Positions 25,978-58,129 of a DNA stretch of 64,000 nucleotides are shown piece by piece. The translations under genes were made by a program, and so were the position numbers. The notes beneath the pieces are model-generated. The model searched no databases, was not told the origin of the DNA, and worked only from the letters and a program-made list of their open reading frames with translations. Position 1 is the first letter of the stretch, and each line of letters starts with the position of its first letter. This DNA is from Erodium maritimum (taxonomy: Eukaryota; Streptophyta; Magnoliopsida; Geraniales; Geraniaceae). The stretch spans positions 34,307,825 through 34,371,824 of the forward strand of contig OY997591.1 of the NCBI GenBank assembly GCA_963921825.1. The letters run 5' to 3'.

Positions 25978-26190
25978 ATGGATATATTCAGTGCATATGA
26001 GAATGGGAGGAGAAAACATGGTTTTCAGGGTAGAGTTAGACGAATGTATGTTAATAAGCCCACTCCTCTAGGGAAGAGAATCATATCTCCGAGATTGTCT
26101 TTATGTTTTGATGGTCATTATCAGAGGATTAGTGAACCTGCTTACAGTTATTCGAAGAATAAAATGAGTGTTTGGAAGATATGCGATGCT
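25978..26190 (+). CDS. Gene A exon 1, tandem PWI-like family
   Basis: ATG at 25978 opens 71 codons ending in KNKMSVWKICDA directly before GTGAGT. The protein start is basic (RRKHGFQGRVRRM). The last 27 residues align by eye with gene D (DGHYQRIS... against DHKLQDRR..., and VWKICDA against NWLIYDA), showing that these are paralogous exons in the same splice phase. A candidate acceptor (TTTTCAG) lies at 26243-26249, and joining there would keep frame with 29143 onward. A solo LTR inserted at 26265 now separates the two exons. The function is unknown. The start was chosen because a partial duplicate (29827) shares this ATG but not the frame upstream. Confidence 0.55.
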
Positions 26191-26264
26191 GTGAGTATAT
26201 TTGTATTTATTTATGCAGGTTAAGTTTGTGTGGTTTCATAATTTTCAGTTGACCTATTTCCATG

Positions 26265-29132
26265 TGTAAGAACCACTCCCAGTCAACGCCAGTCAAATCG
26301 GCGAAAAACAGGAAAATTTAAATTTTTTAGAAAGACACTTAAATGAACCTAAATTTGACCCCGAGGGTCATACCGGACTTAAGTTGACCCCGTTATCGAC
26401 CAAAGTGAGTTCCGGGGGACTCAGGGCACCTTTCTGACCAATTTGGGAAAGGTTCACTTTTTGTTGGAAAAGTCAACCAAGCGACATTTTGGTCCATTCG
26501 AGGTCCGTTTTGGATCCAAAAAACTTAGCCGTCGTCGCAACGGTCTTAGTTGAGCCGTTTCCTTGTAGCCCGTGAAGTTTCATAATTTCTTGGAAAAAGT
26601 GCCCGTTCGGGGCCCGAAACAACCGAATTTCACGAATCTGATTGGAAAATATCTAGAAGATATTCTCCAAAAAGGTGTGGGACCCACTTGCCACATGTCA
26701 ATTATGTGGTGGTGTTAGGTGATTTTTGAAAATAGACAAAGATGAGAGGTGTAGGGGGGTTCGGCCATAGTGTGAAAAATAGGGTTTTTGGAGAGAGAAA
26801 AGAAGAGAGAAGAAAGGGAGAAAAAGAGAAGAAGGCTTGGTGTTTGTGACTTTTCCCGACGATCAAACCGGTAGATCGTCTCAACGCTCATGGAATCGAG
26901 TTCACACCGTCATTCTCTATGGTGAGCATCTAACCGATTTTCGTTTTATTAAGTTTGAAAGTTAGGGTTTGGGTTAAAACTAGTAGTTTGTGGTTGAGTT
27001 GAGGTGTGGGGTTTGTTGGAGACGTTTTGGAGCGAAGTTTGATCGTTTTCCAGTGACCGGAGGCTCGGGGGAGCTCCGGCCGCCGTGTATGGTGGCTGGC
27101 CGGACGTGTAGGATGGCTGGCTGGAGCTAGGACCGGCCACCACCATGGTGAACCGGCCCTAGCCACCCACGGCCAAGGATGGCCGGGTGGGGCCCACATG
27201 CTCGGTTTTTCGGGTTTCATGTTCGGGTGGTTTAGGACGATCCCCAAGTCGTTAATCCACACCCGGATCGAAATTTGGAATTAAATTTTAAAAGTTGTAA
27301 ATGACAGGTTTAGAAACTTTAAACGCGAATTAAATTACTCGAAAGTCGGAATTTGATTCCGTCGAGTGCATAGGAACCCTTGAGTTATTCTAAGACCGTA
27401 GAAACCCTGGAAGGATGTTTTCCAATCCCAGGCAGATTCACCGGGTCGGACGAAACGGGCCTTTCCGAGTCCATTATCGACAATGTCAAGTAATTGGGAA
27501 GTTTGGGAGTGATCGAAATTGTCGGGGTTACTTTTGGGCGTCAAGTTTATGAAAATTCAGTTTATCCCTGCAAGCTTAAAAGTGTTTTAAATTGTGTTCT
27601 TATTAGATCGTGCCACCGACAGAGGAAAGGGAAAGCTAGGCGAGTGATCGAGATCACGCCAGAGCTTGATTTTGAGCTTTTGGGGAAAGCATACGAGGTA
27701 GGGAAAAGTAGCCGGATCTCGGCCCTGACTAGGGAAAGTTAACAGTAGAAATACATGTGACACTTGGGTGTCGTGGGTTAAGTAAGTTTATCAAATGATA
27801 GAAAGGCAGGCGACACCGGGTGGTGTCGTATGATACGGGAACGTATAGAACAATAGAAATGCATGTGAGACTTAGTAGTGTCGTAGGAGCAATGAACTTA
27901 TCGATATTAGAATTACTGGAGGCATTTGATTATGCCCGGAGGTTGATTGGTTAGTTTGTGTCTTGGGTGGCCATGAGTGCCCGTGGGGTTGTTGAGCCCG
28001 TGTCTTTATTGTTGGTGTGTCTTGGGTGGCCATGAGTGCCCGTGGGGTTGTTGAACCCGTTTCTTTACTATTGTGTCTTGGGTGGCCATGAGTGCCCGTG
28101 GGGTTGTTGAACCCGTGTTTTACCGTTGGTGTCTTGGGTGGCCATGAGTGCCCGTGGGGTTGTTGAACCCGTGTTTTACCGTTGGTGTCTTGGGTGGCCT
28201 TGAGTGCCTGTGGAGTGTTAAACCGGTGTTGTTGCTGTTGTTGAAATTTGCTTGTGATTGTGATTGTGGTTACCTGGGGTTGGTGAGTGACAGGTCGACA
28301 GCCTGATCCGACTTTGTGTCGGGAAAAGTGCGACATGTCGACCACCTGATCCAACCGTCGTGTTGGGAAAAGTACGACATGTCGACCGCCTGATCCAACC
28401 GTCGTGTTGGGAAAAGTGCGGCACGTCGACAGCCTGATCCGATTGAGTGTCGGGAAAAGTGCGACAGGTCGATAGCCTGATCCAACCGTCGTGTTGGGAA
28501 AAGTGCGACAGGTCGGCCGCCTGATCCAACCGTCGTGTTGGGAAAAGGGCAAGGGTACTGAGCAGCTGGAGTGCGATCCTTTGTGATCTTGTTTGGTGTG
28601 CGATTCTTTGTGATCTTGGGTGTTGCGTGGTTATCTTTCGTGTCCTTGGAGGAAGTCGTAATCGTTGTGTCGGGTCTACATTACGTGTCCGAGTGTTGAG
28701 TCGGTTGAGGAAAGTAATAGTCGTGTGTCAGTCGGGTTACTTGAGTTTGGGGATAGTAGTCCCCGGTGTTTGGGGTTGTTGTTGTTGTTTCCGTCATGTT
28801 CTGCTAAGTATGCCGTAGTCAATCTGGTATCCGTGGTGGTGAGCGAACGCTCACCCCTAGCTGCTTTTCCTACAGGTACTGGTCGCGGGACGGACTAGGT
28901 GAGCTCTCGAAGCTTGAAGAGCTAGGAGCGGGAGTCCGGGTTTCCTTTTTGAGTCTAACGACGTACGCCTTGTATTTTGTCCGCTTGTTGGGACGTACTT
29001 TTGAGTTGTAAATTATTATTTTGATTAACTAAATGGTGGTTTTAAAGCGATTTATTTAAAAGGTTTGAAAATGTTTTATTGTCTTAAACGTTCGCGTTCC
29101 GGGTTCGGTTCTACTGAATTTGGGGCGTGACA
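26265..29132 (+). mobile_element. Solo LTR, Tekay family, inside gene A
   Basis: TGTAAGAACC to GGGGCGTGACA, with CCATG before and CTATG after (5-bp target copies, one mismatch). The minisatellites are at 27950-28220 and 28290-28550. It lies just beyond gene A's predicted splice acceptor and before the conserved exon-2 domain, so it would have to be read through or spliced around. Confidence 0.92.
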
Positions 29133-29457
29133 CTATGTATTTGTGCAACATGATATTGGTGGTAGGTTACGTTCATGGATTGTAGAGAATGTGGGAAATA
29201 TTATAGGGGCTGAAGATGAGTTATTGATAGATCGAATAATTGCTGGGTTAGATCAACACACGCAAGAACAGGAAATGTTTTTTCGTCTATATGATTTCTT
29301 TGGGGGTGATTGTAGCAGTTTTGTATTTCGATTGTATAATCTTTTAGAGCGAAATGTTGGAGCGGTTGATCGAAGTATCCATTTGTTATTCGTTAATGAT
29401 CCGCACCTGCATGCATATGGGTTATCTCCACCACCTAATGATCCTGAAAGTTGTTAG
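29133..29457 (+). CDS. Gene A exon 2, PWI-like domain
   Basis: Open from the LTR edge to TAG at 29455-29457 in frame VQHDIGGRLRSWIVENVG... The segment runs LRSWI (start of the domain), IIGAEDELLIDRIIAGLDQH (acidic turn and long helix), then MFFRLYDFFG and FVFRLYNLLER. This order of W, G-x-E-D-E, L-I-D-x-I, H and F-V-x-x-L matches the PWI fold of RBM25/SRRM1, which binds nucleic acid. Unlike B and C it lacks an acidic tail and ends in AYGLSPPPNDPESC. The domain call is by eye; paralogy with B, C and D is firmer. Expression is doubtful with the LTR in place. Confidence 0.55.
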
Positions 29458-29826
29458 TGATTATGGAGATAATTAGTGGTTGTATTGAAGTTGTAAATTA
29501 TAATAAAGTTTAATTTTGATATGTTGGTTTATTTAATACGTGGATTTGCAAATTAAGTTTAGCGGAAACATGCATGACGTGTTGTTCATGTTTTGTAGGT
29601 TCATTGAAGTTTCGTCTAGACTTTTTGAGTGTAATCATAATAGTTATGTTAAGAATGATGGCTTGGTCAGTGTTTCCCGGATTTAATAAATTTGTGGGCA
29701 ATAATAAAGCACCCGCAAAGCATGGACAAGTAACATTCATGAAAGCGGTTTACATGTAATATATATTGGACGGTTTTTGTTTGTATTTTTAAATTCCGTC
29801 TTCTAAACGTATGGCGTTTTGATATT

Positions 29827-29908
29827 GTTGGTTGTGTCTATATTTAACTGTTGAATATTGTGTCTATTAAGGTCGGCTCAGTTGTGAGGTTTGTATATGG
29901 AGCATTAT

Positions 29909-29942
<34 letters not shown>

Positions 29943-30006
29943 GATATGAAAATGGGACGAGAAAATACGGTTTCCAATTTGTTATACGATAATGATCCGC
30001 ACAGGT
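29827..30006 (+). pseudogene. Collapsed duplicate of gene A (leader/exon 1 start joined to exon 2 end)
   Basis: 29827-29975 resembles 25899-26027 (TTGGTTGTGT..., GCATTATGGATATA, GGATATGAAAATGGGA), with a (TA)n expansion at 29911-29939. From about 29976 it switches to sequence like 29380-29406 (TTTGTTATACGATAATGATC). Most of the gene is missing. It looks like a tandem copy shortened by deletion. Confidence 0.65.
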
Positions 30007-30114
30007 GAATTGGGTAGAAGCTTAGCTTGTCTGTCCTTGATGAGTCGGTTTTGATACAGATAGATTGTAATATTTTTGTTGTTTAGTTGTTTATTGTTAA
30101 AAATTAAGCGAATA

Positions 30115-30357
30115 ATGAGGAATCGTTATGAACTCGACGACCGCAAAAAGAAATTGAAGGAGCAGAGTGAGAAAGAGAAACAACAGCGACGCCTCATGAA
30201 GCACGAGGCGTTGGAGACGGATTTCATGGCTGTCAGGTTGAAGCTGAATAAGATTTTACTTCAACTTGAAATTCTGGCCAGTGATGCAGGCGAACAGTTG
30301 TCCACGAAGATGAACGAAGTCATTGTAGCTCTGGACAACGTTATTAAGATGCTGTGA
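30115..30357 (+). CDS. Hypothetical 80-aa helical protein in the gene array
   Basis: ATG at 30115 to TGA at 30357. The first 35 residues are highly charged (YELDDRKKKLKEQSEKEKQQ), then come heptad-like Leu/Ile spacings (LKLNKILLQLEILASDAGEQ) and a second amphipathic stretch ending in VIKML. It would be a soluble coiled-coil protein with no signal peptide or membrane segment. Codon use is ordinary for a plant gene and the frame is clean over a region where the other frames are closed. No relative was recognised in the window. It could also be the last exon of a neighbouring transcript. Confidence 0.5.
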   Translation: MRNRYELDDRKKKLKEQSEKEKQQRRLMKHEALETDFMAVRLKLNKILLQLEILASDAGEQLSTKMNEVIVALDNVIKML

Positions 30358-30677
30358 TATGGTAGTAAATCCTAGAATATTATGAAGACAATCTAGGCCT
30401 TTTATTCCCCCTTTATGTTTTTTTGCTATTAACCTAATGTAAAAGAAATTGTTTGTTTAAATCGTATATTGCAGTTTTTTTGTTTTCAATCGTTTAACTT
30501 CCAAGTGATCATGTCTTCAGTCGTGAAATTCAACTCTCTTCCTTATTTTTGTTTTCACAGTCGTTGTAAAAAAGTTATTTTTTGCTTCAGAACTTGAAAT
30601 CTATTAAGAAGATGTGATGAGTTTTATATTTAAAAGAAGACGTATATGCTTGTGATAACCTAAATGTGTAGAGAATT
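30358..30677. other. 3' flank of the 80-aa frame, no gene seen
   Basis: T-rich sequence compatible with a 3' UTR. Ends with GAATT, the target-site copy of the next solo LTR. Confidence 0.5.
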
Positions 30678-33600
30678 TATCACGCCCCAATTTCAGTAAA
30701 CCGAACTCAGGACGTGAACCTTTAAAACAATAAAATATTTTGAACCTTTTACATTAAACCACTTTAAAAACACCATTTGTTCAACAAAATAATATTTACA
30801 ACTTAAAATACGTCCCAACAAGTGGACAAAAGTATGGTATCCGTCGCTAGACTCAAAATAAACACAAAATCCCGCTCCTAGCTCTTCAAGCTTCAGAAGC
30901 TCACCTAGTCCAACCTGCGACCGGTACCTGTAGGAAAAGCAGCTAGGGGTGAGCGTTCGCTCACCACCACGGATAATAGACTGACTACGGCATAATTAGC
31001 AGACAATGCCGGTAACACTAACAACCAACTCAACCCCGGGGATCACTATCCCCAAACTCAAGTAACCCGACCGACACCCACACACTGATACTTTCCTCAG
31101 CCGACTCAACACTCGGACACGTAAGGTAGACCCGACACAACGATCGAAGACCTCCTCCAAAGACACGACAGACCACCACGCAACACCCAAGATCACAAAG
31201 GATCGCACTCCTGTCAGCTGCTCAGTGCCGGTTGCTAACCGGCTGGGCTCGAGCCTGCCCCCCGCGCTTTGCTGATCCCTGTCAGGCTCCAGGCGGTCGA
31301 CCTGTTGGCGATATATACAGCGCTGCTTTTCCGATAGCTGGTTGGAAGGGGAACTGCCCTCTCATCGCCTAAAAACGCTCACAACCTCCCGAGACTCGAA
31401 CTCGGTCAGGCTAGCCAAAGAACGCTCGCAACTTTCCGAGACTCGAACTCGGTCAAGCCAGCCAAAGAACGCTCGCAACTTACCGATCCCTGTCAGGTAA
31501 GCCAGCCAAATTCCACACCACTTCCCGACACGAAGTCGGGTCACTAACCTCGGGCAAACACAATCACAATCACAAGCAAGGTTCAACAAACAGCAACAAG
31601 ACCGGTTCAACACTCAACAGGCACTCATGGCCACCCAAGACACCAACGGTAAAACACGGACTCAATAACCCCACGGGCACTCACGGCCTCCCAAGACACA
31701 CCAACCATAACTCACGGGCTCAACAACCCCACGGGCACTCACGGCCTCCCAAGACACACCAACCATAACTCACGGGCTCAACAACCCCACGGGCACTCAC
31801 GGCCTCCCAAAACACACCAACCATAACTCACGGGCTCAACAACCCCACGGGCATTCATGGCCACCCAAGATACACCAACCATAACTCACATGCTCAACAA
31901 CCCCACGGGCACTCATGGCCACCCAAGGCACACCAACAGTAAAGACACGAGTTCAACAACCCCACGGGCACTCATGGCCTCCCAAGACATACCAACAGTA
32001 AAGACACGGGTTCAACAACCCCACAGGCACTCATGGCCACCCAAGACACCAACAGTAAAACATGGGCTCTCATGGCCACCCAAGACACAACAGTAAAACA
32101 CAAGCTCTTATGGCCACCCAAGACACAACATACACAATCAAACTCCGGCATAAGCAATGCCTCCAACAGTCCTAATATCAACAGTTTCACAATCAACCTC
32201 CGGGCATGGTCATATGCCTCCAGTACTCCTAATCTCGATAAGTTCACAATCAACCTCCGGGCATGGTCATATGCCTCCAGTAATTCTAACATCGATAAGT
32301 TCTCAGCTCCTACGACACTACTAGGTGTCACATGCATTTCCAATCTTCGATAACCTACCTAACCCACGACACCCCAAATGTCACATGCATTTCTAATATT
32401 CGACAACCTACTTAACCCACGACACCCAAGTGTCACATGCAATTCTACTATTAACTTTCCCTAGTCAGGGCCGAGATCCGGCTACTTTTCCCTACCTCGT
32501 ATGCTTTCTCCAAAGCGCACAAAAATAAGCTCCGGCGTGATCTCGGTCACTTGCCTAGCTTTCCCTTCCCTCTGTATGCAGCACGATCTAAAAGAACACA
32601 GTTTTAAGGCACTTTTAAACTTGCAGGAATAAACTGAAATTCGACAAACTTGACGCCCAAAAGTAACCCCGTCAATGTCGATCACTCCCAAACTCCCCAA
32701 TTACTCGACATTGTCGATATTGGACCCGGAAAGGCCCGATTCGCCCGACATGGCAAATCTGCCCGGGTTTTGAAAACGCCCTTCCGGGGCTCCGAAAATT
32801 CCCGTTTTCGTTTCTACGGTCTTAGAATAATTCAAGGGTTCCTAGGCACTCGACGGAATCGAATTCCGACTTCCGAGTCATTTAATTAGCGTTTAAAGTT
32901 TCTAAACCCGTCAATTATAACTTTCACAATTTAATTCCAAATTTCGATCCGGGTGTGGATTAACGACTTGGAGAACGTCCTAAACCACCCGAACACTAAA
33001 ACCCGATACCCGGGCATGTGGGCCCCACACGGCCATAATTGGGAAAATTCCCTTTTCGCCCCAAAACGTTCCTAACGAACTCCAAACCTCAACCATTCAT
33101 CTTTAAACCAAACTTAAACAAAACCCAACCTTAATCAACCCATTTAAACTTAAACCCTAAAATTCAAACGTTCCAAAACGAAAATCGGTTAGATGCTCAC
33201 CGTAGAGAATGACGGTGTGAACTCGATTCTTCTATCTTTGAGATGATCCAACGGTTGGATTGTCGGGAAATCACAAAACTCCAACACTTTCTCTCTTTTT
33301 CTCTCTCTTTTCTTCTATCTCTTCTTTCTCTCTCTACAAACCTCATTTTTGTCAATATGGCCGAACACACCCTTTCTTTCCCTTTTAAAATTGTTTTAAA
33401 ACAACACAACTTTACCATAATTACAAAACTAACACCAAAGTCTCATCTTTTGTTTTGCCCAATAAACCTAACACCACCAAATTGGTGACATGTGGCAAGT
33501 GGGTCCCATCCCTTTTTGGAAAATACCTTCTAGATATTTTCCAATCAGATTCACGAAATTCGGCCGTCTCGGGCCCCGAACGGGCACTTTTTCCAAGAAA

Positions 33601-34978: not shown

Positions 34979-35305
34979 ATGAATCTTCGTTCCGGACGCG
35001 TTGTTAGTGAGGAACTGAATCAGAGTGATGCATCAGTTGATTTAGGGGAAGGTTGATGCCAGATTGAGGAGCAGGTGAATTCCGGAGTGAATAGAAGCCG
35101 TCGAGAAGAAGCTGCTTTGGCTACAAATAAAGTGAGTGTCGTTGATTCTGGTGAAGGAACGTCTATCAATCCGGGAAGGAATGAAAGTCATATGAAGGCT
35201 CCAATCCATGTTATACCTGAATGCTATCCTACTGCAGAAGCTATCGAAAAGATGCAGGTTGATAATTCACGTGATGCTAACATCGATTGGAATGTCTATG
35301 ATAAG
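34979..35305 (+). pseudogene. Gene B exon 1, LRSGRVV family
   Basis: ATG at 34979 starts MNLRSGRVVSEEL, nearly the same as gene C (MKLRSGRVVDAD). The frame continues through a hydrophilic region to AEAIEKMQVDNSRDANIDWNVYDK and a GTAATT donor. One in-frame TGA lies at 35054-35056, so either the copy is dead or a short alternative exon boundary avoids it. The WNVYD end corresponds to WKICD in A and WLIYD in D. The N-terminal motif is short and basic, and could be a nucleic-acid contact or localisation signal; that is a guess. Confidence 0.55.
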
Positions 35306-35375
35306 GTAATTTGGAAAAAGTTTTTTTTTTTGTAAATTTTTTGCTATTAATTAATTTTCAATTGATCAATTGCAG

Positions 35376-36034
35376 TATTGGCTTCATGATAAAATGATTC
35401 CGTATTTAGAAGAAACAATATATGATATTATTGAATATGTTGAAGATAATATTGTTGGAACAATTTCGGGTTCTTTGGATGAACATAAGTCTGAAGAAGA
35501 AATGGTTGTTATTATGAAACCAATGCTAGGCCCTTTCACACGTAGGTTTGTGCATGAACTATATTTGGTTTTGCACTTTTTTATTGCACAAATAGATATG
35601 GTATGGTGCAGTGTTTTTGTAACTGAAGATGGAAGTATACTGGTTTTGGGAGAACCAATTGATATTTCTGAAGAAGTTGATGCAAATGACTTTCATAATG
35701 GAGAAAAAGATGACGATTATGACCCGATGGTGATGGAGAAGACTATGAAGTAGATGTTTCTGATGATGAAATTGAAAAAGAGGAAAAGGTAATATTGGTT
35801 GAAATGTTGAATGAAGAAGAGGATGGTAATCCTGCAGCTGAAATTGGGGAAGAAGGTGATCAAGAAGCTGATGATGAAGACGAGGCTGATTATGTGGAGA
35901 TATTTTCTGATTCGGATGGAGATGATGCAGATTTTGGTGAACAAGAGGATGAAGATGTCATGTTTTTTGATATGGCTGTTGATGGTGATTCATCGGGAGA
36001 GTCGTCCAACGGTTCATGCATTGAAGATTTCTAA
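35376..36034 (+). pseudogene. Gene B exon 2, PWI-like domain plus acidic tail
   Basis: It follows a 70-nt intron with TTGCAG acceptor and stays in phase with exon 1. The domain part reads LHDKMIPYLEETIYDIIEYV, then ISGSLDEHKSEEEMV and FVHELYLVLHFF, matching A and C position by position (helix, E-H turn, F-V-H-x-L-Y-L-V-L). A strand-like segment with VTEDGSILVLGEP follows, shared with C. The acidic tail (EEEDGNPAAE..., DDEDEADYVEIFSDSDGDD) is read in another frame from about 35725 and ends at TAA 36032-36034, so there is a frameshift near 35720-35730 or an unrecognised small intron. PWI assignment by eye. Confidence 0.58.
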
Positions 36035-36679: not shown

Positions 36680-39600
36680 TGTAAGAACCACTCCCAGTCA
36701 ACGCTAGTCAAATCTGCGAAAAACAGGAAAATTTAAAATATTTGGAAAGACACTTAAATGAACCCAAATTTGACCCCGAGGGTCATATCGGACTTAAGTT
36801 GACCCCGGCATCGACCAAAGTGAGTTCCGGGGGACTCAGGGCAACTTTCTGACCAATTTGGGAAATGTTGACTTTTTACTGGAAAAGTCAACCGAGGTTT
36901 TGGTCCGTTCGAGGTCCGTTTTGGATCCAAAAAGCTTAGCCGTCGTCACAACGGCCTTAGTTGAGCCGTTTCCTTGTAGCCCGTGAAGTTTCGTAATTTC
37001 TTGGAAAAAGTGCCCGTTCGGAGCCCGAGACGGCCGAATTTCGCGAATCTGACTGAAAAATATCTAGAAGATATTATCCAAAAGGTGTGGGACCCACATG
37101 CCACATGTCACTAATGTGGTGGTGTTAGGTAACATTGAACAAAACAAAGGAAGACTTGTAAGTGTTAGTTTTGTAAATAAGGAAAGTTGGTGTTAGTTTT
37201 TAAAACAAATTAAAAGGAAGAAGAAGTGATACACGGCCAAGACGTTTCAAAAAGGAAAAGAAATAGGTTTCTAGAGAGAGAAAGTGAGTTAGAAGAAGGA
37301 GAGAAAAGAGAAGAAGAAGTTGAAGGTTTTGGTGATTCTCGACGATCAAACCGGTAGATCGTCTCAACGATCAAAGAATCGAACTCCCATCGACTTTCTC
37401 TACGGTGAACAACTATCCGATCTTCGTTTTGTTAAGTTCAAAAGTTAGGGTTTGGGTTAAAACTAGTAGTTTTTGGATGTGTTGAGGTGTGGGGTTCGTT
37501 GGAGACGTTTTGGAGCGAAGTTGGAACGTTTTCCGGTGACCGGAGGCTCGGGGGAGCTCCGGCCACCGTGTAGGGTGGCTGGACGGACTTGTAGGGTGGC
37601 TGTCCGGAGCTAGGACCAGCCACCACCATGGTGGACCCCAAACCGGCCCTAGCCACCCACGACCAAAGATGGCCGGGTGGGGCCCACATGCTCAAGTGTT
37701 CGGGTTTCGTGTTCGGGTGGTTTAGGACGTTCCCCAATTCGTTAATCCACACCCGGATCGAAATTTGGAATTAAATTGTGAAAGCTGCAATTGACGGGTT
37801 TAGAAACTTTAAACGCGAATTAAATTACTCGGAAGTCGGAATTGGATTCCGTCGAGTGCATAGGAACCCTTGAATTATTCTAAGACCGTAGAAACGAAAA
37901 CGGGAATTTTCGGAGCCCCGGAAGGACGTTTTCAAAACCCGGGCAGATTCGCCATGTCGGCCGAATCGGGCCTTTCCGGGTCCATTATCGACAATGTCGA
38001 GTAATTGGGAAGTTTGGGAGTGATCGACATTGTCGGGGTTACTTTTGGGCGTCAAGTTTATTAAAATTCAGTTTGTGCCTGCGAACTTAAAATGATGTTA
38101 AATTGTGTTCTTATTAGATCGTGCTGCCGACAGAGGAAAGGGAAAGCTAGGCGAGTGATCGAGATCACGCCGGAGCTTGATTGTGAGCTTTTGGAGAACG
38201 CATACGAGGTAGGGAAAAGTAGCCGGATCTCGGCCCCGACTAGGGAAAGTTAACAGTAGAAATGCATGTGACACTTGGGTGTCGTGGGTTAAGTAAGTTT
38301 ATCGAACATTAGAAAGGCAGGCGACACCGGGTGGTGTCGTATGATACGGGAACGTATCGAACCATGGAAAGGCTTGTGGAACTTAGTAGTGTCGTAGGAG
38401 TAGTGAGCTTGTTGATATTAGAACTACTGGAGGCATTTGGTTATGCCCGGAGGTTGATTGTGAGCATGTTGATATTAGAACTGCTGGAGGCATTGGTTAT
38501 GCCCGGAGGTTGATTGTGTAGTTGTGTCTTGGGTGGCCATGAGAGCCCGTACTTTACTGTTTGTGTCTTGGGTGGCCATGAGAGCCCGTACTTTACTGTT
38601 TGTGTCTTGGGTGGCCATGAGAGCCCGTACTTTACTGTTGGTGTCTTGGGTGGCCATGAGAGCCCGTATTTTACTGTTGGTGTCTTGGGAGGCCATGAGT
38701 GCCCGTGGGGTTGTTGAGCCGTGTTTTACTATCAGTGTCTCTTGGGTGGCCGTGAGTGCCCGTGGGGTTGTTGAGCCCGTGAGTTACTGTTGGTGTGTCT
38801 TGGGAGGCCATGAGTGCCCGTGGGGTTGTTGAGCCCATGAGTTACTGTTGATGTGTCTTGGGAGGCCGTGAGTGCCCGTGTGGTTGTTGAGCCCGTGTCT
38901 TTACAGTTGGTGTGTTTTGGTGGCCGTGAGTGCATGTGAGGTTATTGAGCCCGTGAGTTACTGTCGGTGTGTCTTGGGTGGCCATGAGTGCCTGTGAAGT
39001 GTTAGACCGGTATTGTTGCTGTTTGTTGAACTTTGCTTGTGATTGTGATTGTGGTTACTTGAGGTTGGGGGCCCGCTTCATAATAATGGGGGTCCTGTGA
39101 TCGCACGCGTATGCACGTTCAGACGAGGTAGGGGGCCCGCCTGTGAGGAAAGGGGTCCTGGTCGCGCGTGCGTGGGGGTGACAGGTCGACAACCTGATCC
39201 GACTTTGTGTCGGGAAAAGTGCGACAGGTCGACCGCCTGGCCTGACAGGGATCGGAAAAAGTGCGACAGGTCGACCGCCTGTCCTGACAGGGATCGGTAA
39301 AGGGCGAGGGGGTTACTGAGCAGCCAGAGTGCGATTCTTTGTGATCTTGTTTGGTGTGCGATCCTTTGTGATCTTGGGTGTTGCGTGGTGGTCTTTCGTG
39401 TCTTTGGAGGAAGTCGTAATCGTTGTGTCGGGTCTACATTACGTGTCCGAGTGTTGAGTCGGTTGAGGAAAGTAACGGTTTGTGTTTCAGTCAGGTTACT
39501 TGAGTCTGGGGACAGTAGTCCCCGGTGTTGGGTTTGTTGTTGGTGTTACCGGTATTGTCTGCTAGTATGCCGTAGTCAGTCTGTTATCTATGGTGGTGAG

Positions 39601-45881: not shown

Positions 45882-46142
45882 ATGAAGCTGCGTTCTGGCC
45901 GCGTGGTTGATGCAGACGGGTGCGGGGATACCAATTTTTGCATCTCAATTCGACAGAAAAATGCAACTGGTGGACGAAAAGGAACAGTCAGTTATGAGGA
46001 ATTTTTTCCTGAAATGGTAAAGGCGGAAGTAAAAACACCAGTTGAGAAAGGACATGATCCACTTCCGGCTACAGAAGTTATTGAGCGCTTTCTTTCCAAG
46101 TTTTCGCGCAATCGAGGAATTGATTGGAATATTTAAGATACT
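45882..46142 (+). pseudogene. Gene C exon 1, LRSGRVV family
   Basis: ATG at 45882 starts MKLRSGRVVDADGCGD, then a hydrophilic region with SYEEFFPEMVKAEVK, then TEVIERFLSKFSRNRGIDWNI and a GTAAGT donor at 46143. The end matches gene B (NIDWNVYD), but the Tyr codon is replaced by TAA at 46134-46136, so the copy is inactive or ends here. Relatives: A, B and D. The intron that follows holds a MULE. Confidence 0.6.
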
Positions 46143-46191
46143 GTAAGTTCGTGTATAGACCCTGAAAGTTAAATTATGTTATTTTATTCTA

Positions 46192-47335
46192 GGGTAAATT
46201 ACGTTTGACTACCCCGAACTATAAGCGTTTAACGGTTGACTACCCCAATGTTTATTCGTAACAATCACCTACCCCGAACTAACCATTTGTAACGACGTTG
46301 GTACCTCCCATCCATTTTTCCATCTTTTCACTGTTCATTTTTTTCTAAAATCCCAAAAATACCCTTACTATTTAAAACTCTAAAACAATTAATTTATAAT
46401 TAATTTCTTTTTTCATGTTTTTGTTAATACTCTTTATTTTCTAATATTTTAGAAATTGAAAAAAAAATCCCCATCCATGTTCTTCAACCTGTTGAGCTCC
46501 GGCGACCTACAAGCCACCCCTGGCAATTCAACGATTCGCAAACAGAGTTACTCTCCGGCAACGATTTGCTCGACTAACAGTTTTCATTTTGGAAAATCAA
46601 CGATTTGTTTCCCCAAAATCAGAATCTGAATCGATATAACAAATCAACGCTTTGTTTCCCAAAATCTACCAGAATCAGAATCGATCCAAGGAGGTGATAA
46701 GTAGATTGAACTATAGAGCTAAGAAGGGGATCGAAGAACAATCCACCGTCTCATTTTTGCCAATGGAAAATCAAATTTGTGCCTGAACCTTCAGATCTGT
46801 CGCTGGAGAAGGAGAAGTCGAGGCCGAAGCCATGGAGCTCGCGAACTCAGCCGGACTCCACACCACAAAGCTCCAGGACACGACAGTTTTGGTTGCGGGG
46901 TTGTCCACCATGGCTACCGTTTGAGCTCCACCGCCGTCGGTACTGGTACAGTCCACCATGTAACCGAGAGAATCTAAACGTGAAGAGAAAATCTAATGAT
47001 TTTTGATTTTATTTTTATTTTTGTGTGTATGCAAATTATATATTTGATATAAAAAAGATTTTCTGATTTAAAATAAATAAAAAATGAAAAGAAGAAATAA
47101 AAAACAGATTTGATTTTAAATATATATATATATATATAATTTCAAATTAAAAAAAAACTGATTATATATATATATATATGTATATAAAATTTCAAATTAA
47201 AAAAAAAAACTGATTTTCTGATTTAAAATAAATGAAAAGATGAAAAGAAGAAATAAAAAACAGATTTTCAAATTATATATATAATTTTCAAAATTTTCTA
47301 ATTTAAAATAAAAAGAAGAAATAAAAAACATATTT

Positions 47336-47387
<52 letters not shown>

Positions 47388-47874
47388 AATTTCATATTAA
47401 AAAAAACTGATTTTTAAAAATAAAACAGAAATTTTAAAATATTTTTTTATCAATTTATAAATATTTCAGTTTTTAAAATATTATATTAAAGAGCATTAAT
47501 AAAAGTTTACAATTTTTTTATATTTTTCTTAAACATATTTCAGTTTCTTAAACATTTAAAATTAAAATCAGAACATAAAAAATTGAAATATATTTTTTGA
47601 AACATTAATTTTAAATTTTTGAAAATTAATAGTTCATTTATTTCTAATTTAATAATAATAAACAAACTGTAGGGTTTATATGGTATAAAGGTGTAAATCT
47701 TGATAGCAGTGGAGGGTATTTTCGTCTTTTTACAAAATAATTAACAAACATGGATGGAAAGGGGGTGATGGCGTTACTAAACGTTAGTTCGGGGTAGGTG
47801 ATTGTTACGAGTAAACATTGGGGTAGTCAACCGTTAAACGCGTATAGTTCGGGGTAGTCAAACGTAATTTACCC
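46192..47874. mobile_element. Non-autonomous Mutator-like element (MULE), possible Pack-MULE
   Basis: Ninety-two-bp terminal inverted repeats (46192-46283 and 47783-47874) open with GGGTAAATTACGTTTGACTA and differ at about two sites. The flanks carry an exact 9-bp duplication, TTTATTCTA (46183-46191 and 47875-47883), the mark of Mutator-type insertion. No transposase is present. The left interior (46480-46990) is GC-richer and gene-like, with an open 62-codon frame on the minus strand (46771-46959), and may be a captured host fragment. The right interior is AT-rich with TA runs. It sits in the intron of gene C. Confidence 0.9.
46480..46990. other. Possible captured gene fragment inside the MULE
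   Basis: Higher GC than the rest of the element, with phrases like GAGCTCCGGCGACC and a minus-strand frame (VDNPATKTVVSWSFVVWSP) of 62 codons. No protein family was recognised, so capture is a suspicion only. Confidence 0.3.
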
Positions 47875-47883
47875 TTTATTCTA

Positions 47884-48309
47884 ATTCATAATCGTATTAC
47901 ACAACATCAAATCCGAAGCATAATTCATCCTTATGTCCAACAACAGTTGGAAGGCATTGTGCGGGATGCTGATAATGTAATAGTTGACATGGTTTTAACT
48001 TTATTGGATCATCATACAACTGAGCAACAGATGGTTGAAGTGCTATGTAAAATGTTGGATCCGTGTACGGAAAGGTTTGTGCATTATCTGTATTTGGTTT
48101 TGCTGTATTTCAGTGCAAAATACGATATGCCTGGGTGCTCTTTTGCTATCAATGAATGTGGAGGCTTTTATGTTCTTGGAGAACCAGCTGATGTGGATAA
48201 TGATGAAGAGAGTTCAAGTTCTCATTCTGATATTTCTTCTGGTTATCTTGTTGATTTGGATGATGATGAAGACGCCGATGATGAAGAAGAGTCTTGTGAT
48301 TTTGAATAG
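47884..48309 (+). pseudogene. Gene C exon 2, PWI-like domain plus acidic tail
   Basis: The frame (…THQ-type TQHQIRSIIHPYVQQQLEGI…) gives IVRDADNVIVDMVLTLLDHH, then TTEQQMVEVLCKMLD and ERFVHYLYLVLLYFSAKYD. This is the clearest PWI-like pattern in the window: D-x-x-V-I-V-D-M, L-D-H-H, M-L-D, R-F-V-x-x-L-Y. A segment with GGFYVLGEP follows, shared with B, and then an acidic tail (SDISSGYLVDLDDDEDADDE). It stops at 48307-48309; further tail-like codons (SDADVSTDTSDEWAV) occur in another frame up to about 48390, where a Tekay element is inserted. The splice acceptor is not clear. Probably a dead copy. Confidence 0.6.
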
Positions 48310-48387: not shown

Positions 48388-50953
48388 TGTAAAACCCGCT
48401 TATTTAAAAAGGGATATTCTTTTGTAATTAGAATCGTCGGGGTAGGTTTGTACAATAAGTGGTCTTTGTAAAAAAAAAAGGAAGTTGGGATCGTTCAGAC
48501 CTGACCTGACTCGCAGGCCCGGCCAGGCCCGACTCCCCCCCCCCTCGCTTGGGCCTGAGGCCCGTTTGCTCGCCACCGGCCCAAAAGGGAAACCAGCCCG
48601 CGTATATAAGAAGGGTGAATTAGGGTTTCGAACCCTAATTCACTTCAGACACGCCCTCTCTCCCTCTAACCTCTCGACTCCGCCTCCCTCTTCTCGAGCC
48701 GACCCTCTCTTCTTCTCTCTCTCCCCTCGCTGGCGACGCCCCCATCCCCGATCTACAGTTCTCTCTTCTCCGTTCACCGCAGCCCTCTTCTCTCCCGAGT
48801 TCCCGCCTCCGGTGCTAGGGTTCTCACAGATATCGCCGCCGCCGCCCCGAGCCTCTCTCTCCGCCTAACCCACGACCGCCACCGTCTTCTCTCCCCGACT
48901 CCGTTCCACCAAATCCGGTCGCCGGCCATCCAAAACTCGGGCTCCCTCTTAGATCTCAAACCCGATCCCCATCTCCCTCACCTTCCTTTGTCTCTCCACT
49001 GCGCGTAGCCCGAGCCCCACCGTCGCCATCCACTCGGCGGTTCTGTGACGGAAACCAGACTCACCGTCCAGATCCGTTACGGGAGCTCCGTCGTGCTGCG
49101 CCGCACTCACCGCCGCATCCCCACCGTCACCCTTTCCCCACGGTGAGAATATCACCCATGGGGTTTGGTCGACGGCGATGACTTCGCCGGTGGCTGGATT
49201 ATTTTCCCGTTTTTCCTTTCCCTTTTACTTTTATGTCCCGAGCTTCTCGAATCTGTACAGTTTTGGAAACAAAAGTTTTGATCTGGTTAGTGACGAAACG
49301 ATCTCTGTTTTGGATCTGGATTGAGGGAAAGCAAATTTTCCATTAAACCTAAAAGTAAAGAATTTGATTAACTAATGAATCGGGTTTTTGAATTAAAAGG
49401 AAATTAAAGTCAGTTTTGAGTTCTTAAGAAAAAATGATAAAACTGGATCTGGTTTAATTAAAAAGGTTTTAAAACGAAAATCTGTTGTTAAAATTAAACT
49501 TGAGTTAAGTTAAATCGAAAAGGGGGAAAACGAAATCAGATCGGATTTAGAAAGGATTGGACCTTAATCTTGAGTTTGGAAAAGAACAGAAAGGAATCGT
49601 TTTGTTTTAAAATAAAATCGGAATTAAATAAAGCAAAGGAGTTTCGAAGACGGTTTTGAGTTAAAAATGGTTTTAACTGGGTGTTGGATCAAATCTGAGT
49701 TCGGTGCGCGGGTGCTCGAACCCGATTCGTCGTAATCCCACCTTTAGCTCGCTCGAGTCTAAAAGACAACTTTTGAACTTAATCGAATCCATCGTAACCT
49801 TTAAAAAAAAATGGTGAAACCGGTTTTAATTGTAACTTTCTGTGTAAAGTATAGTGCAGCTTCGATCGAAGAGAAAACCGGAGTTACACCCAGACGCGGA
49901 CTTCGCCTTGGAAGACGGCGTTGGCCCGGTCGTCAGGAGCTAGGAGACGCTGCTGTGGTTTCGTCGTGAGGTAGGGAAAAGTAGCCGGATCTCGGCCCTG
50001 ACTAGGGAAAGTTAACAGTAGAATTGCATGTGACACCGGGGTGTCGTGGGTTAAGTAGGTTTATCGAATATTAGAAAAGCATGTTACGGGGACTTAGCAA
50101 TTATTGGAAGGGCATGTGACACTTAGTAGTGTCGTAGGAGCAGAGAACTTAGCGTTATTAGGAGTACTGGAGGCATATGACCATGCCCGGAGGTTGATTG
50201 TGAAACTGGTAATATTAGAACTGTTGGAGGCATTGGTTATGCCGGAGGTTGTTGTGTATTACTATCGTGTCTTGGGTGGCCATGAGAGCCCGTGTTATTA
50301 TTGTTGAGTCTTGGGTGGCCTTGAGAGCCCGTGTTATTATTGTTGAGTCTTGGGTGGCCTTGAGAGCCCGTGCTATTATTGTTGAGTCTTGGGTGGCCAT
50401 GAGAGCCCGTGTTATTATTTGTGTTTGGGTGGCCATGAGATCCTTTGTGATCTTGTTTAGTGTGCGATCCTTTGTGATCTTGGTATTGCGTGGTTGTCAG
50501 TCGTGTCTTTGGAGGAGGTCGTCAATTGTTGTGTGGGGTCTACATCACGTGTCCGAGTGTATGAGTCGGTTGAGAAAAGTGTTGGTCGTGTGTGTACCAT
50601 TTGAGTCGTTGTTGGTGTCACCAGATTTATCTGCTAAGTATGCCGTAGTCAGTCTGTTATCTGTGGTGGTGAGCGAATGCTCACCCCTAGCTGCTTTTCC
50701 TACAGGTACCGTTCGCATGCTGGACTAGGTGACCTTCTGAAGCTTGAAGAGCTTGAAGCGGGTTTCTGGGTGTTTTGAGTCTAGTGACGTGTACCTCGTT
50801 TTGTCCAATTGTTGGGACTTACTTTGAGATGTAAATATTATTTTGTTGAACTAAACTGGTATTTTAAGGTGTTTTAATGGAAAAGGTTTCAAAGTGTTCT
50901 TTATTTTAAACGTTCGCGTCCCGAGTTCAGTTTGCTGAAATTGGGGCGTGACA
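48388..50953 (+). mobile_element. 5' LTR of the 48388-57443 element
   Basis: TGTAAAACCCGC to GGGGCGTGACA. Its first 1.6 kb is unrelated to the TGTAAGAACC subfamily, but from about 49972 (GTAGGGAAAAGTAGCCGG) it joins the common family LTR. The reading frame at 48485-48868 is LTR sequence, not a gene. Confidence 0.92.
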
Positions 50954-52187: not shown

Positions 52188-52416
52188 AGTATGCCATAAT
52201 CGAACGGGTGTCCGTGGAGGTGAGCATAACGCTCATCCCCTTTACTACTTTTCCCGCAAGGGACGAGTAGCGAACACTGGTTTGGTTGCGGAAAGTTATA
52301 AGTAAATGCATAGAGGACCGTGTGAGGGTTGCACTGGACCTTACCGGGGTGACTAAGGGAGTGGATGTTCGGTCTCCGTTTTGTGCGTCAATTTTAATGG
52401 GTAACGGGGCGTCACA
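52188..52416 (+). other. LTR-end-like relic within the internal region
   Basis: Counterpart of 41083-41313, ending GGGGCGTCACA. Shared position in both elements means it predates their separation. Confidence 0.6.
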
Positions 52417-52929
52417 CTCTTCTGCTTCGTCGAGTTGTGTTGAGTTAGAGCCGTTGAGTCCACCCCTGCGTCGGGACACGCCGGTTGGTGGTAGTGTGGT
52501 GTTGACAAAGGTCTGTCGTGCCTGCGAAGTTAGAAAAGCGAGCTGATACAGGAGGTTCGAGAGAGGGCTCAAGAGCCCTGATACTGGATTGAGTCCTCAC
52601 CCCGAGGATCGGGTATGTTCGGAGTTGGTAGGCACGACGACGACAGTGGAGCGAGGTCTTAGAGAGACTGCGAGGATCTGTGAGGACCGACATCGATTGA
52701 ACTTGTGCTTGTATCCGTGGGAAGAATACTTACTAAATGTCAACCTTTAACGTAATCTTGGAAATAGATTGGCTGGCGAAGTACCGAGCCAATATCGACT
52801 GTCACAGACGACTAGTGACGGTGTCAACGGGCAACACGAGAGGTTCATGTATTCTGGACAGTGGGAGCGGAGTTCTCCTGTCGGCTTGTCCGTAGTAAAG
52901 GAAGTATCGGTCGTGCAGAGCCGAGAGTT

Positions 52930-53510
52930 ACCGCGAGAGGCGTGCGAGTTCCCTGAGGTCCTCCCTAAGGAATTGAGCGGGTTGCCACCAGTTCGTGAGG
53001 TGGAGTTCAGGATTGACCTGGTGCCGGGAACGGCAGCGTTATCGATGGCGCCTTACAGGTTCGCACAAGCCGATTTGACCAAGCTGAAGAGTCAGCCCGA
53101 GGAATTTCTGGAGAAGGGGTTTATTCGTCCGAGCACATCGATGTGGGAAGCGCCAGCACTCTTCGTGAAGAAGAAGAGTGGAGAGCTTCGGATGTGCATG
53201 GACTACCGGAAACTGAACCGGGTTACGGTGGATGACCGATACCCGATGCCGAAAATTGACGACTTGTTCGACCAGTTGAGAGGGTCGACGCTTTTTTCTC
53301 GAAGATCGACCTACGATCCCGATACTACCAGTTGCGAGTCCGAGAGGGGGACGTCGCAAGGACTGTATTCCGGACATGCTATGAGCATTACGAGTTCGGG
53401 GTGATGACTCTGAACTGCCGAACGCACCTGCAGCGTTCATGGATCTGATGAACAGTATGTTCCGACCGTTCTTAAATCAGTCTGGGGTGATGTTTGTGGA
53501 CGACAAAGAT
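52930..53510 (+). other. Reverse transcriptase region (fossil)
   Basis: Blocks [40 protein letters not shown] and [19 protein letters not shown] match the 41850-43096 element and the Tekay/Del pattern. It is broken. Confidence 0.88.
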
Positions 53511-54469: not shown

Positions 54470-57443
54470 TGTAAAACCCGCTTATTTAAAAAGGGATATT
54501 CTTTTGTAATTAGAATCGTCGGGGTAGGTTTGTGCAATAAGTGGTCTTTGTAAAAAAAAAGGAAGTTGGGATCATTCAGACCTGACCTGACTCGCAGGCC
54601 CGGCCAGGCCCGACTCCCCCCCTCGCTTGGGCCTGAGGCCCGTTTGCTCGCCACCGGCCCAAAAGGGAAACCAGCCCGCGTATATAAGAAGGGTGAATTA
54701 GGGTTTCGAACCCTAATTCACTTCAGACACGCCCTCTCTCCCTCTAACCTCTCGACTCCGCCTCCCTCTTCTCGAGCTGACCCTCTCTTCTTCTCTCTCT
54801 CTCCTCGCCGGCGACGCCCCCATCCCCGATCTACAGCTCTCTCTTCTCCGTTCACCGCATCCCTCTTCTCTCCCGAGTTCCCGCTTCCGGTGCTAGGGTT
54901 CTCACAGATATCGCCGCCGCCGCCCCGAGCCTCTCTCTCCGTCTAACCCACGACCACCACCATCTTCTCTCCCCGACTCCGTTCCACCAAATCCGGTCCC
55001 CGGCCATCCAAAACCCGGGCTCCCTCTCAGATCTTAAACCCGAGCCCCCTCTCCCTCACCTTCCTTCGTCTCTCCACTGCGCGTAGCCCGAGCCCCACCG
55101 TCGCCATCCACTTGCCGGTTCTGTGACGGAAACCAGACTCACCGTCCAGATCCGTTACGGGAGCTCCGCCGTGCTCCGCCGCACTCACCGCCGCATCCCC
55201 ACCGTCACCCTTTCCCCACAGTGAGAATCTCACCCACGGGGTTTGGTCGCCGGCGATGACTTCGCCGGTGGCCGGATAATTTTCCCGTTTTTCCTTTCCC
55301 TTTTACTTTTCTGTCCCGAGCTTCTCGAATCTGTACAGTTTTGGAAACAAAAGTTTTGATCTGGTTAGTGACGAAACGATCTCTGTTTTGGATCTGGATT
55401 GAGGGGAAGCAAATTTTCCATTAAACCTAAAAGTAAAGAATTTGATTAACTAATGAATCGGGTTTTTGGATTAAAAGGAAATTAAAGTCAATTTTGAGTT
55501 CTTAAGAAAAAAATGATAAAACTGGATCTGGTTTAATTAAAAAGGTTTTAAAACGAAAATCTGTTGTTAAAATTAAACTTGAGTTAAGTTAAATCGAAAA
55601 GGGGGAAAACGAAATCAGATCGGATTTAGAAAGGATTGGACCTTAATCTTGAGTTTGGAAAAGAACAGAAAGGAATCGTTTTGTTTTAAAATAAAATCGG
55701 AATTAAATAAAGCAAAGGAGTTTCGAAGACGGTTTTGAGTTAAAAATGGTTTTAACTGGGTGTTGGATCAAATCTGAGTTCGGTGCGCGGGTGCTCGAAC
55801 CCGATTCGTCGTAATCCCACCTTTAGCTCGCTCGAGTCTAAAACACAACTTTTGAACTTAATCGAATCCATCGTAACCTTTAAAAAAAAATGGTGAAACC
55901 GGTTTTAATTGTAACTTTCTGTGTAAAGTATAGTGCAGCTTCGATCGAAGAGAAAACCGGAGTTACACCCAGACGCGGACTTCACCTTGGAAGACGGCGT
56001 TGGCCCGGTCGTCAGGAGCTAGGAGACGCTGCTGTGGTTTCGTCGTGAGGTAGGGAAAAGTAGCCGGATCTCGGCCCTGACTAGGGAAAGTTAACAGTAG
56101 AATTGCATGTGACACCGGGGTGTCGTGGGTTAAGTAGGTTTATCGAATATTAGAAAAGCATGTTACGGGAACTTATCAATTATTGGAAGGGCATGTGACA
56201 CTTAGTAGTGTCGTAGGAGCAGAGAACTTAGCGTTATTAGGAGTACTGGAGGCATATGACCATGCCCGGAGGTTGATTGTGAAACTGGTAATATTAGAAC
56301 TGTTGGAGGCATTGGTTATGCCGGAGGTTGTTGTGTATTACTATCGTGTCTTGGGTGGCCATGAGAGCCCGTGTTATTATTGTTGAGTCTTGGGTGGCCA
56401 TGAGAGCCCGTGTTATTATTTGTGTTTTGGGTGGCCATGAGAGCCTGTACTTTACTGTTGGGGCTTTGGGTGGCCATGAATGCCCGTAGGGTTTTTGAAC
56501 CCGTGTCTTTGCTGTTGGAGTCGTGGGTGGCCGTGAGTGCCCGTGGGGTTGTTGAGTCCGTGTCTTACTGTTGGTGTCTTGGGTGGCCATGAGTGCCTGT
56601 GGAGTGTTGATCTTGTGTTGTTGCCGTTTGTTGAACCTTGCTTGTGATTGTGATTGGTTACTTGATACTGGTGGAGGTTGTGTGGTGTAGCTAGCCTCCC
56701 GACTGGGATCGGGAGAAGCGGAGAGGTTGTGGGCTAGCTCCCCGACTGGGATCGGGGGAAGGACGAGTGGGTGTGGCTAACCACCCGACTGGGATCGGGT
56801 GAAGTGGAGAGGCTGTGGGTTAGCCTCCCGACTGGGATCGGGAGAAGTTGCGCGACAGGTCGACCGCCTGGCCCGACTGGGATCGGAAAGGGCGAGGGAC
56901 AAAGATGGTTACTGAGCAGCTGGTATGCGATCCTTTGTGATCTTGTTTGGTGTGCGATCCTTTGTGATCTTGGTATTGCGTGGTTGTCAGTCGTGTCTTT
57001 GGAGGAGGTCGTCAATTGTTGTGTGGGGTCTACATCACGTGTCCGAGTGTATGAGTCGGTTGAGAAAAGTGTTGGTCGTGTGTGTGTCATTTGAGTCGTT
57101 GTTGGTGTCACCAGATTTATCTGCTAAGTATGCCGTAGTCAGTCTGTTATCTGTGGTGGTGAGCGAACGCTCACCCCTAGCTGCTTTTCCTACAGGTACC
57201 GTTCGCAGGCTGGACTAGGTGAGCTTCTGAAGCTTGAAGAGCTTGAACCGGGTTTCTTGGTGTTTTGAGTCTAGTGACGTGTACCTCGTTTTGTCCAATT
57301 GTTGGGACTTATTTTGAGATGTAAATATTATTTTTTTGAACTAAACTGGTATTTTAAGGTGTTTTAATGGAAAATGTTTCAAAGTGTTCTTTATTTTAAA
57401 CGTTCGCGTCCCGAGTTCAGTTCGCTGAAATTGGGGCGTGACA
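54470..57443 (+). mobile_element. 3' LTR of the 48388-57443 element
   Basis: Follows the purine tract (AAGGGGGGTAGAC). Compared with the 5' LTR it keeps a longer minisatellite and the four-hairpin array (about 56690-56880), the mirror of 2761-2909. Confidence 0.92.
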
Positions 57444-57840
57444 GGTTTAATGTAAATTTGAATTAAAAATTGGAATATTTAATGTTGTGGTAATATACGT
57501 GTCGTTTTAAATTGTTATGCACCTACGGTGGTTATTTATGCAAGAACGTGTATTTTTAACGGTTAAGTATATAATATAAATTAATCGCACTTTCAAGCAT
57601 GGGATTGTAAGATTTATAAGTAACTGATTAGTACAGATATCAAACTTTTGGTAGATAATTTAAATTATACACATTGAAGTTGAGTTTTGAATTTAAAATA
57701 TATTATGTACAGTTATTGTCGGTGCAATTGAGTGATGGTATAAACATATTTAGTTCCAGTAACCGTACAAAACTACCCAATGGTTTCGGAAATATATGAT
57801 ATATGGTTGATTAAATCCCTATATATATAATTTAGTGGCA
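57444..57840. other. Flank of gene D
   Basis: AT-rich host DNA that resumes gene C's downstream sequence after the element. No gene before 57841. Confidence 0.5.
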
Positions 57841-57972
57841 ATGTATATGGAGAGAAAAGAATTTGAAGTTGTTAGTGTTTACTGGATGGACTCCGACCAT
57901 AAATTGCAGGATCGTCGACCTATATACAGACATGCAGAAAATAGGTTGATTAATTGGTTGATTTATGATGCG
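57841..57972 (+). pseudogene. Gene D exon 1
   Basis: ATG at 57841 gives 44 codons: MYMERKEFEVVSVYWMDSDH, then KLQDRRPIYRHAENRLINWLIYDA, followed by GTAAGA. The end matches exon 1 of A, B and C (W-x-I/V-Y/C-D before the donor). The LRSGRVV start of B and C is absent. No in-frame acceptor was found that joins cleanly to 58036 onward, so the copy may already be out of frame. Confidence 0.5.
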
Positions 57973-58035
57973 GTAAGATTGTTATCACGTTAAATTGTTG
58001 TCTTTTTCTATAGTTTGCATGTTATTAATTGAGGC

Positions 58036-58129
58036 ATGCATATTAATGTACATCATGCATTGGGAGATAAGCTTCGAGAATGGATTAAGGAGGAAGTCAC
58101 CAATATAGTATTTCGCCAGGGGTATGATC
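58036..58129 (+). pseudogene. Gene D exon 2, cut by a copia element
   Basis: Reads VHHALGDKLREWIKEEVTNI, the counterpart of gene A's VQHDIGGRLRSWIVENVGNI and so the first helix of the PWI-like domain. It then stops at a Ty1/copia LTR beginning at 58130. The rest of the exon may lie beyond the window, after the element. Confidence 0.6.

What the first reader, a model, noticed from the sequence alone, without database searches (positions are those of the whole stretch)
25978..58129. Tandem array of at least four diverged copies of an undescribed two-exon gene
A (25978-29457), B (34979-36034), C (45882-48309) and D (57841-58129) lie on one strand at roughly 9-12 kb spacing. Each exon 1 ends in a W-x-I/V-Y/C-D motif right before the splice donor (VWKICDA, DWNVYDK, DWNI*DT, NWLIYDA). 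Each exon 2 opens with an HD/HH-type segment leading into the same helical domain. The proteins differ strongly outside these points, as in a fast-evolving local family. This is the best candidate for an undescribed system here.
Basis: partly seen in the sequence, partly recalled or inferred. Interest (0 to 1): 0.8.

Follow-up and report, generated by a model that had tools for sequence, protein, structure and literature searches.

The report
Decayed cluster of splicing-factor-derived mini-genes
The window holds a broken, transposon-bloated copy of a cluster of small two-exon genes that look derived from the end of the splicing factor RBM25, a family with roughly a hundred places in this genome.

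Summary
A, B, C and D are diverged two-exon relatives. Exon 2 encodes a PWI domain (PF01480), and the W-x-x-Y-D | H junction matches the phase-0 intron before the PWI exon of this genome's own RBM25. So the domain is known; the expanded family seems undescribed. Four merged searches give 125 uncurated places, including 2 RBM25 and 4 halves of two SRRM1-type genes. The window array is one copy of an older cluster (composite order E-A-F-G-B-C-D). Copies group by type, not by place; the window's B-C-D DNA is 93-96% identical, spacers included, to blocks elsewhere on C4 and on C7. The 9-12 kb spacing comes from inserted elements. All four window copies carry lesions. In pairs I chose, deeper same-type pairs show constraint (pooled dN/dS 0.20), young window-type pairs little (0.69). 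Likely these are stand-alone PWI proteins that bind partners in splicing complexes; that function is inferred. Literature searches listed no such plant family, but lists were capped.

The parts
25714..25866 (+). E: remnant of a further member just before A (end of exon 1 and start of exon 2; the rest of exon 2 deleted)
   Evidence: profile hit at 25798-25866, 8.6 bits; aligned to L017 at 91.9% over 25714-25849, then L017 sequence is skipped
25978..26190 (+). A exon 1, ends VWKICDA before donor GTGAGT
26265..29132 (.). 2,868-base TG...CA element in the intron of A, imperfect 5-base target repeat (CCATG/CTATG); absent from the C7 copy L038
29149..29457 (+). A exon 2, PWI domain; the acceptor before it reads CAA where L038 has CAG
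   Evidence: PF01480 36.1 bits
34979..35305 (+). B exon 1 (LRSG start; in-frame TGA at 35054-35056), ends DWNVYDK before GTAATT
35376..36034 (+). B exon 2: PWI domain, frameshift near 35726, then an acidic tail
   Evidence: PF01480 22.1 bits
36680..45198 (.). inserted LTR-type sequence between B and C; its end pieces 36680-37452 and 44232-45006 are 95.5% identical; target repeat not determined
   Evidence: block homology to L039/L042 stops at 36655 and resumes at 45199
45882..46142 (+). C exon 1 (LRSG start), with TAA at 46134-46136 in the motif where L039 and L042 read TAT
46192..47874 (.). 1,683-base inverted-repeat element in the intron of C, 9-base target repeat TTTATTCTA (Mutator-like label is recalled); empty site in L039 and L042
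47905..48309 (+). C exon 2: PWI domain and acidic tail; acceptor CAA (CAG in L042)
   Evidence: PF01480 33.5 bits
48388..57443 (.). 9,056-base LTR retrotransposon between C and D, target repeat GGTTT; LTRs 97.2-97.5% identical
57841..57972 (+). D exon 1, ends NWLIYDA before GTAAGA
58051..58129 (+). D exon 2, first 26 codons; acceptor reads CAT (CAA in L039 and L042); the rest lies outside the window at C4:34374415 on (L043)
58130..64000 (.). LTR retrotransposon cutting D exon 2, target repeat TGATC (58125-58129); runs past the window to about position 66590; 614 bases of LTR compared, 99.8% identical

Best explanation
This is a decayed copy of a multi-gene cluster of stand-alone PWI-domain genes that arose from the last exons of an RBM25-like splicing-factor gene and kept its phase-0 intron between the W-x-x-Y-D exon and the PWI exon. 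Early duplications gave distinct types (E, A, F, G, B, C, D and dispersed ones). The cluster was later copied as a block to several places, and the window's copy has been spread out by inserted elements and broken. Shown here: anatomy, homology, shared types and DNA between clusters, lesions, constraint in deeper pairs. Inferred: intact members are expressed as small proteins whose PWI helical bundle binds protein partners, probably in the splicing complexes where RBM25 acts, as competitors or adaptors rather than as RNA binders.
For: PWI over the Pfam cut-off in A, B and C and matched in 15 of 15 members scanned; a 15-row profile without RBM25 finds human RBM25 PWI first among solved structures, E 2.7e-11. 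The gene taken as RBM25 here (L009) has RBM25 as best solved relative, E 4.4e-21, and shows the same W-x-x-YD motif, donor and CAG acceptor. Types recur together at several clusters and cluster by type in the tree. Window B-C-D DNA is 93-96% identical to L039 and L042. Deep pairs: pooled dN/dS 0.20, p 2e-20. Protein-binding step: no RRM hit in the four window exon-1 frames, family PWI net charge median -6 of 57 rows, tails of B and C -43 and -20; Nab2 shows a PWI-like fold that binds protein and not RNA (passages of PMC2728203).
Against: No expression data. RBM25's own PWI domains here are acidic too (-3 and -12), so acidity does not separate the readings. Exon 1 of A is basic (14 K/R, 5 D/E of 71). 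B is barely over and the D orthologue is under the Pfam cut-off. Several same-type pairs have dN/dS 0.4-0.9. Outer ends of the blocks were not read. By a strict screen 14 of 60 rows look like whole two-exon genes, one of them RBM25-type and one the broken window B.
Confidence: 0.8

Rival explanations
1. Gene fragments captured and multiplied by transposons (Pack-type element or Helitron), without function.
For: Many places (125 merged), many broken copies, elements inserted beside and inside the blocks.
Against: Introns and spacers are kept; homology ends differ between pairs; D DNA lies at only 7 places and its 3' flank follows at several of them; deep pairs are constrained.
Confidence: 0.1
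2. Intact members act as small nucleic-acid-binding splicing regulators, as RBM25's PWI is said to do, with a basic exon 1 taking the part of the basic flank.
For: RRM and PWI of plant RBM25 are described as able to bind DNA or RNA (passages of PMC5344909); SRm160 PWI binding needs residues upstream of the domain (passage); exon 1 of A has 14 K/R and 5 D/E.
Against: Acidic tails in B and C; no RRM hit in the window exon-1 frames. Nothing tested binding.
Confidence: 0.3
3. The whole family is a relic: an old amplification now decaying, in which the constraint seen in deep pairs is only past selection.
For: All four window copies carry lesions; young block pairs show dN/dS 0.69, not different from neutral in this test, p 0.20.
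Against: Uninterrupted two-exon copies exist, such as B in L044 and G in L040 and L037; G between L040 and L037 has dN/dS 0.16.
Confidence: 0.25

Closest known systems
RBM25 (splicing factor; human PWI structure 3v53)
   Same: PWI domain type and the W-x-x-Y-D exon with a phase-0 intron before the PWI exon, as in this genome's L009 and L010
   Different: RBM25 proteins are 747-958 residues with an N-terminal RRM and C-terminal PWI (passage of PMC5344909); the small genes show no RRM in the window exon-1 frames and some have long acidic tails after the PWI
SRRM1/SRm160 (1mp1)
   Same: PWI domain; second-best solved relative of the family profile, E 6.6e-9
   Different: the SRRM1-type genes here (best solved relative SRm160, E 2e-12) split the PWI domain by an intron (profile 1-33 and 34/35-71); the family's PWI exon is not split
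Prp3 PWI (1x4q)
   Same: PWI domain; family profile E 3.5e-6
   Different: weaker sequence match; no shared gene structure was tested
Nab2 N-terminal domain (yeast)
   Same: working model only: a PWI-like bundle that binds protein and not RNA (passages of PMC2728203)
   Different: no sequence relation was found or claimed here

Membership tests
PWI domain family (PF01480) | score over Pfam's gathering cut-off of 22 bits | tested here: met
   A 36.1, C 33.5, B 22.1 bits. Not met for the D orthologue: 18.6 bits in L039
RBM25 | closest PWI type and shared intron before the PWI exon | tested here: met
RBM25 | N-terminal RRM | tested here: not met
   no RRM hit in the four window exon-1 frames; exons further upstream were not excluded. 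Hence derived from RBM25, not RBM25
SRRM1/SRm160 | PWI split by an intron as in this genome's SRRM1-type genes | tested here: not met
transposon ORF family | match to a transposase, integrase or reverse transcriptase model | tested here: not met
   Pfam scans of the window exons gave PWI and weak chance hits; 15 of 15 family members PWI only
transposon-carried gene | common terminal repeats at block ends | tested here: inconclusive
   homology ends differ between pairs, but outer ends of whole blocks were not read
PWI as nucleic-acid binder | binding to RNA or DNA | not testable with these tools
   only charge was counted

The most novel reading that the evidence does not exclude
A plant lineage has turned the RBM25 PWI module into a multi-component set of small proteins, each type kept by selection and carried as an ordered cluster, that tunes or competes with splicing complexes, possibly in a conflict (against transposons or viruses, or between gametes) that would explain the repeated copying and decay.
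Probability: 0.12. Interest if true: 0.75.

Novelty: new variant of a known kind. Interest (0 to 1): 0.45.

Why it matters
PWI is known to me as a domain of a few core splicing proteins per genome (recalled; the passages I saw of an Arabidopsis splicing-gene survey name one PWI gene, SRm160-like). Here it appears as a family of about a hundred places with distinct types, several under past or present constraint. If intact members are expressed, they allow a direct test of whether free PWI modules regulate splicing in trans. The clusters are also a case of a multi-type gene array copied as a block and caught at different stages of decay.

Tried and rejected
An AlphaFold model from the three window PWI exons had mean pLDDT 45, so no fold search was made. 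Conservation in other plants could not be tested: I had no plant collection to search. Young local tandem duplication was rejected by the tree. Transposon capture is disfavoured, not excluded (see rivals). Lost acceptors often read CAA for CAG; decay by methylation-linked change is my guess, untested.

Counts and choices: the pools are 5 deep and 6 young pairs that I picked from those; they share sequences, so the p-values are rough; one search pairs range from 0.08 to 3.41. The deep pool includes one pair with window A. The tree kept hits with profile start at most 12 and end at least 66, merged when one contained the other, 59 rows; D rows fell out because an insertion splits their hit. One search merged rows with the same first 28 residues, so window A (CAA) is hidden behind L038 (CAG) in its 44 of 59. 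The 125 places come from the 85 over-cut-off places and the lists, merged when closer than 330 bases, not curated; the 8 places under the cut-off were left out unless another search held them. Search lists are lower bounds. The charge count of window A ran 15 bases past the donor; one search counts exon 1 correctly.
Full report
What is there. The window lies in a 763-Mb genome of 40 contigs, nine of them of 62-159 Mb, probably a plant (inference). Exon-2 proteins of A, B and C score 36.1, 22.1 and 33.5 bits against the Pfam PWI model, cut-off 22. D is too short in the window; its uninterrupted orthologue in L039 scores 18.6 bits, under the cut-off, but aligns with A at z 31.5. Among A, B and C the alignments beat all of 500 shuffles; the 26-residue window piece of D does so with A and with its orthologue, but not with B (15/500) or C (67/500).

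Where the motif comes from. L009 reads NWAVYDK, GTAAGT, then an exon after CAG that opens HELHERMRPWI; its best solved relative is human RBM25, E 4.4e-21. L010 is a second gene of that type. A profile of 15 family members without RBM25 finds human RBM25 PWI first among solved structures, E 2.7e-11, then SRm160 6.6e-9 and Prp3 3.5e-6. Two other genes, whose first half-domain matches SRm160 best (E 2e-12 for L016; the other by 78% DNA identity), split the PWI domain by an intron, which the family does not. An RBM25-like source is the inference.

Size of the family. The Pfam model finds 93 places at E<=1, 85 of them over the cut-off. Searches with A, C and B exon 2 give 87, 58 and 49 places at E<=0.01. 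Merged as told under Tried and rejected they make 125 places: 55 single and 18 groups of two or more, two of the groups being the SRRM1-type genes. The list is uncurated. In the 20 stretches and elsewhere the usual design repeats: an exon ending in the W-x-x-[YF]-D-type motif, a phase-0 intron, and an unsplit PWI exon, though exon 1 was not found for each (42 of 60 rows).

A cluster copied as a block. Types recur together: window C4:34.34-34.39 Mb, C4:33.73, C4:44.55-44.64, C7:47.38-47.42, C3:34.74-34.82, C1:89.63-89.67 and C5:11.16, with partial sets at C3:50.62, C1:115.09, C6:40.96, C9:16.93 and C1:152.15. In a tree of 59 PWI rows A (7 rows), B (4), C (5), E (4), F (4) and G (3) are each a clade with support 100/97 or better, mixing clusters. 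The order E-A-F-G-B-C-D is a composite: E, A, F, G lie within 2.6 kb in L040 and in the same order in L070; B, C, D lie within about 4 kb in L039 and L042; I saw no single place with all seven. The window's B-C-D DNA is 93-96% identical to L039 and L042, spacers included, 79-94% to C1:89.65 and C3:34.76, and 73-74% for B at C4:44.59 and C5:11.16. D DNA lies at 7 places, the window included, and D's 3' flank is found near several of them. I read this as segmental duplication; how it happened is not known.

Why the array looks evenly spaced. A's intron holds a 2,868-base TG...CA element absent from the C7 copy (96% identical on both sides). About 8.5 kb of LTR-type sequence separates B and C. 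C's intron holds a 1,683-base inverted-repeat element with a 9-base target repeat, absent in L039 and L042. A 9,056-base LTR retrotransposon with target repeat GGTTT and LTRs 97.2-97.5% identical separates C and D. D's exon 2 is cut at 58129 by another LTR retrotransposon with target repeat TGATC, whose compared LTR stretch (614 bases) is 99.8% identical; D continues outside the window in L043.

State of the genes. A: acceptor CAA where the C7 copy has CAG; frames otherwise open. B: TGA in exon 1, and a frameshift before the acidic tail. C: TAA in exon 1 (TAT in L039 and L042) and acceptor CAA (also in L039; CAG in L042). D: acceptor CAT (CAA in L039 and L042), exon 2 interrupted, a stop in the far half. 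Elsewhere decay is common but not general: 44 of 59 merged exon-2 rows keep an AG acceptor, and 14 of 60 rows pass a strict two-exon screen, among them one RBM25-type row and the broken window B; the screen misses genes with further upstream exons. L044 holds an uninterrupted B with LRSG start, PWI and acidic tail; L040 and L037 hold uninterrupted G genes. L040 is not whole either: its A exon 1 is shortened and its F acceptor reads CAA.

Selection. Pooled over five deeper pairs that I chose, dN/dS is 0.20 (p 2e-20); over L040 against L041 alone (E, A, F) 0.31 (p 3e-6). Over six young window-type pairs it is 0.69 (p 0.20), and for the window against C4:33.7 alone 0.90 (p 0.70). So the types were held by selection, and the young blocks show little or none. 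Against this, several same-type pairs lie between 0.4 and 0.9, as mixed age or decay would give.

How it probably works. Inferred only. Plant RBM25's RRM and PWI are described as able to bind DNA or RNA (passages of PMC5344909). In SRm160 binding needs residues upstream of the domain, and Nab2 shows a PWI-like fold without the basic patch that binds protein and not RNA (passages of PMC2728203). Family PWI domains are mostly acidic (median -6 of 57 rows) and the tails of B and C carry -43 and -20; but the two RBM25-type domains here are -3 and -12, and exon 1 of A is basic. I favour protein binding in splicing complexes, as adaptor or competitor; RNA binding is the nearest rival.

Novelty. Searches with PWI plus expansion, tandem or segmental duplication terms (25 of 3,751, 20 of 4,356 and 12 of 1,916 papers listed) and PWI name searches (24 of 24 and 11 of 11 listed) showed no report of such a plant family. 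I saw listings only, besides passages of five papers; the one listed paper with both PWI and gene family expansion is on chordates and names PWI in an enrichment table. Most subscription papers and all plant annotation databases were out of reach. The domain is known; the expanded stand-alone family in recurrent clusters looks like a new variant.

Noticed in passing
window 11644-12411, 18301-18957, 27957-28547, 31620-32452, 38403-38996, 50269-50440, 56346-56610: Arrays of 39-59-base tandem repeats sit inside one recurring repeat family whose pieces also flank the PWI blocks; minisatellites inside long LTR-type sequence.
   Followed up: partly
window 29785-30388: Downstream of A, 29785-29976 resembles the A exon-1 region of L014/L022 (75%), and 30128-30388 resembles L040 4367-4671 (81-84%): remnants of further cluster sequence.
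   Followed up: no
L044 1885-2016 (-); C4:34394128, C4:33765158, C7:47416011, C9:16958221 (-): PWI copies on the opposite strand near the clusters, perhaps a further conserved member H downstream of D.
   Followed up: no
L039 5334-5708, L042 4481-4855: D-type PWI exons carry an in-frame insertion of about 25 residues after the first helix region, which splits the profile hit.
   Followed up: no
acceptor sites of A, C, D, F and others: Lost acceptors often read CAA for CAG in different types and places, which would fit methylation-linked decay.
   Followed up: no
window 41850-42889, 52751-53404, 61480-63699: Open frames that look by eye like Ty3- and Copia-type polyproteins; not searched.
   Followed up: no
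L010 upstream exon: The second RBM25-type gene has an upstream exon with a repeated stretch (same about 110 residues read two to three times).
   Followed up: no
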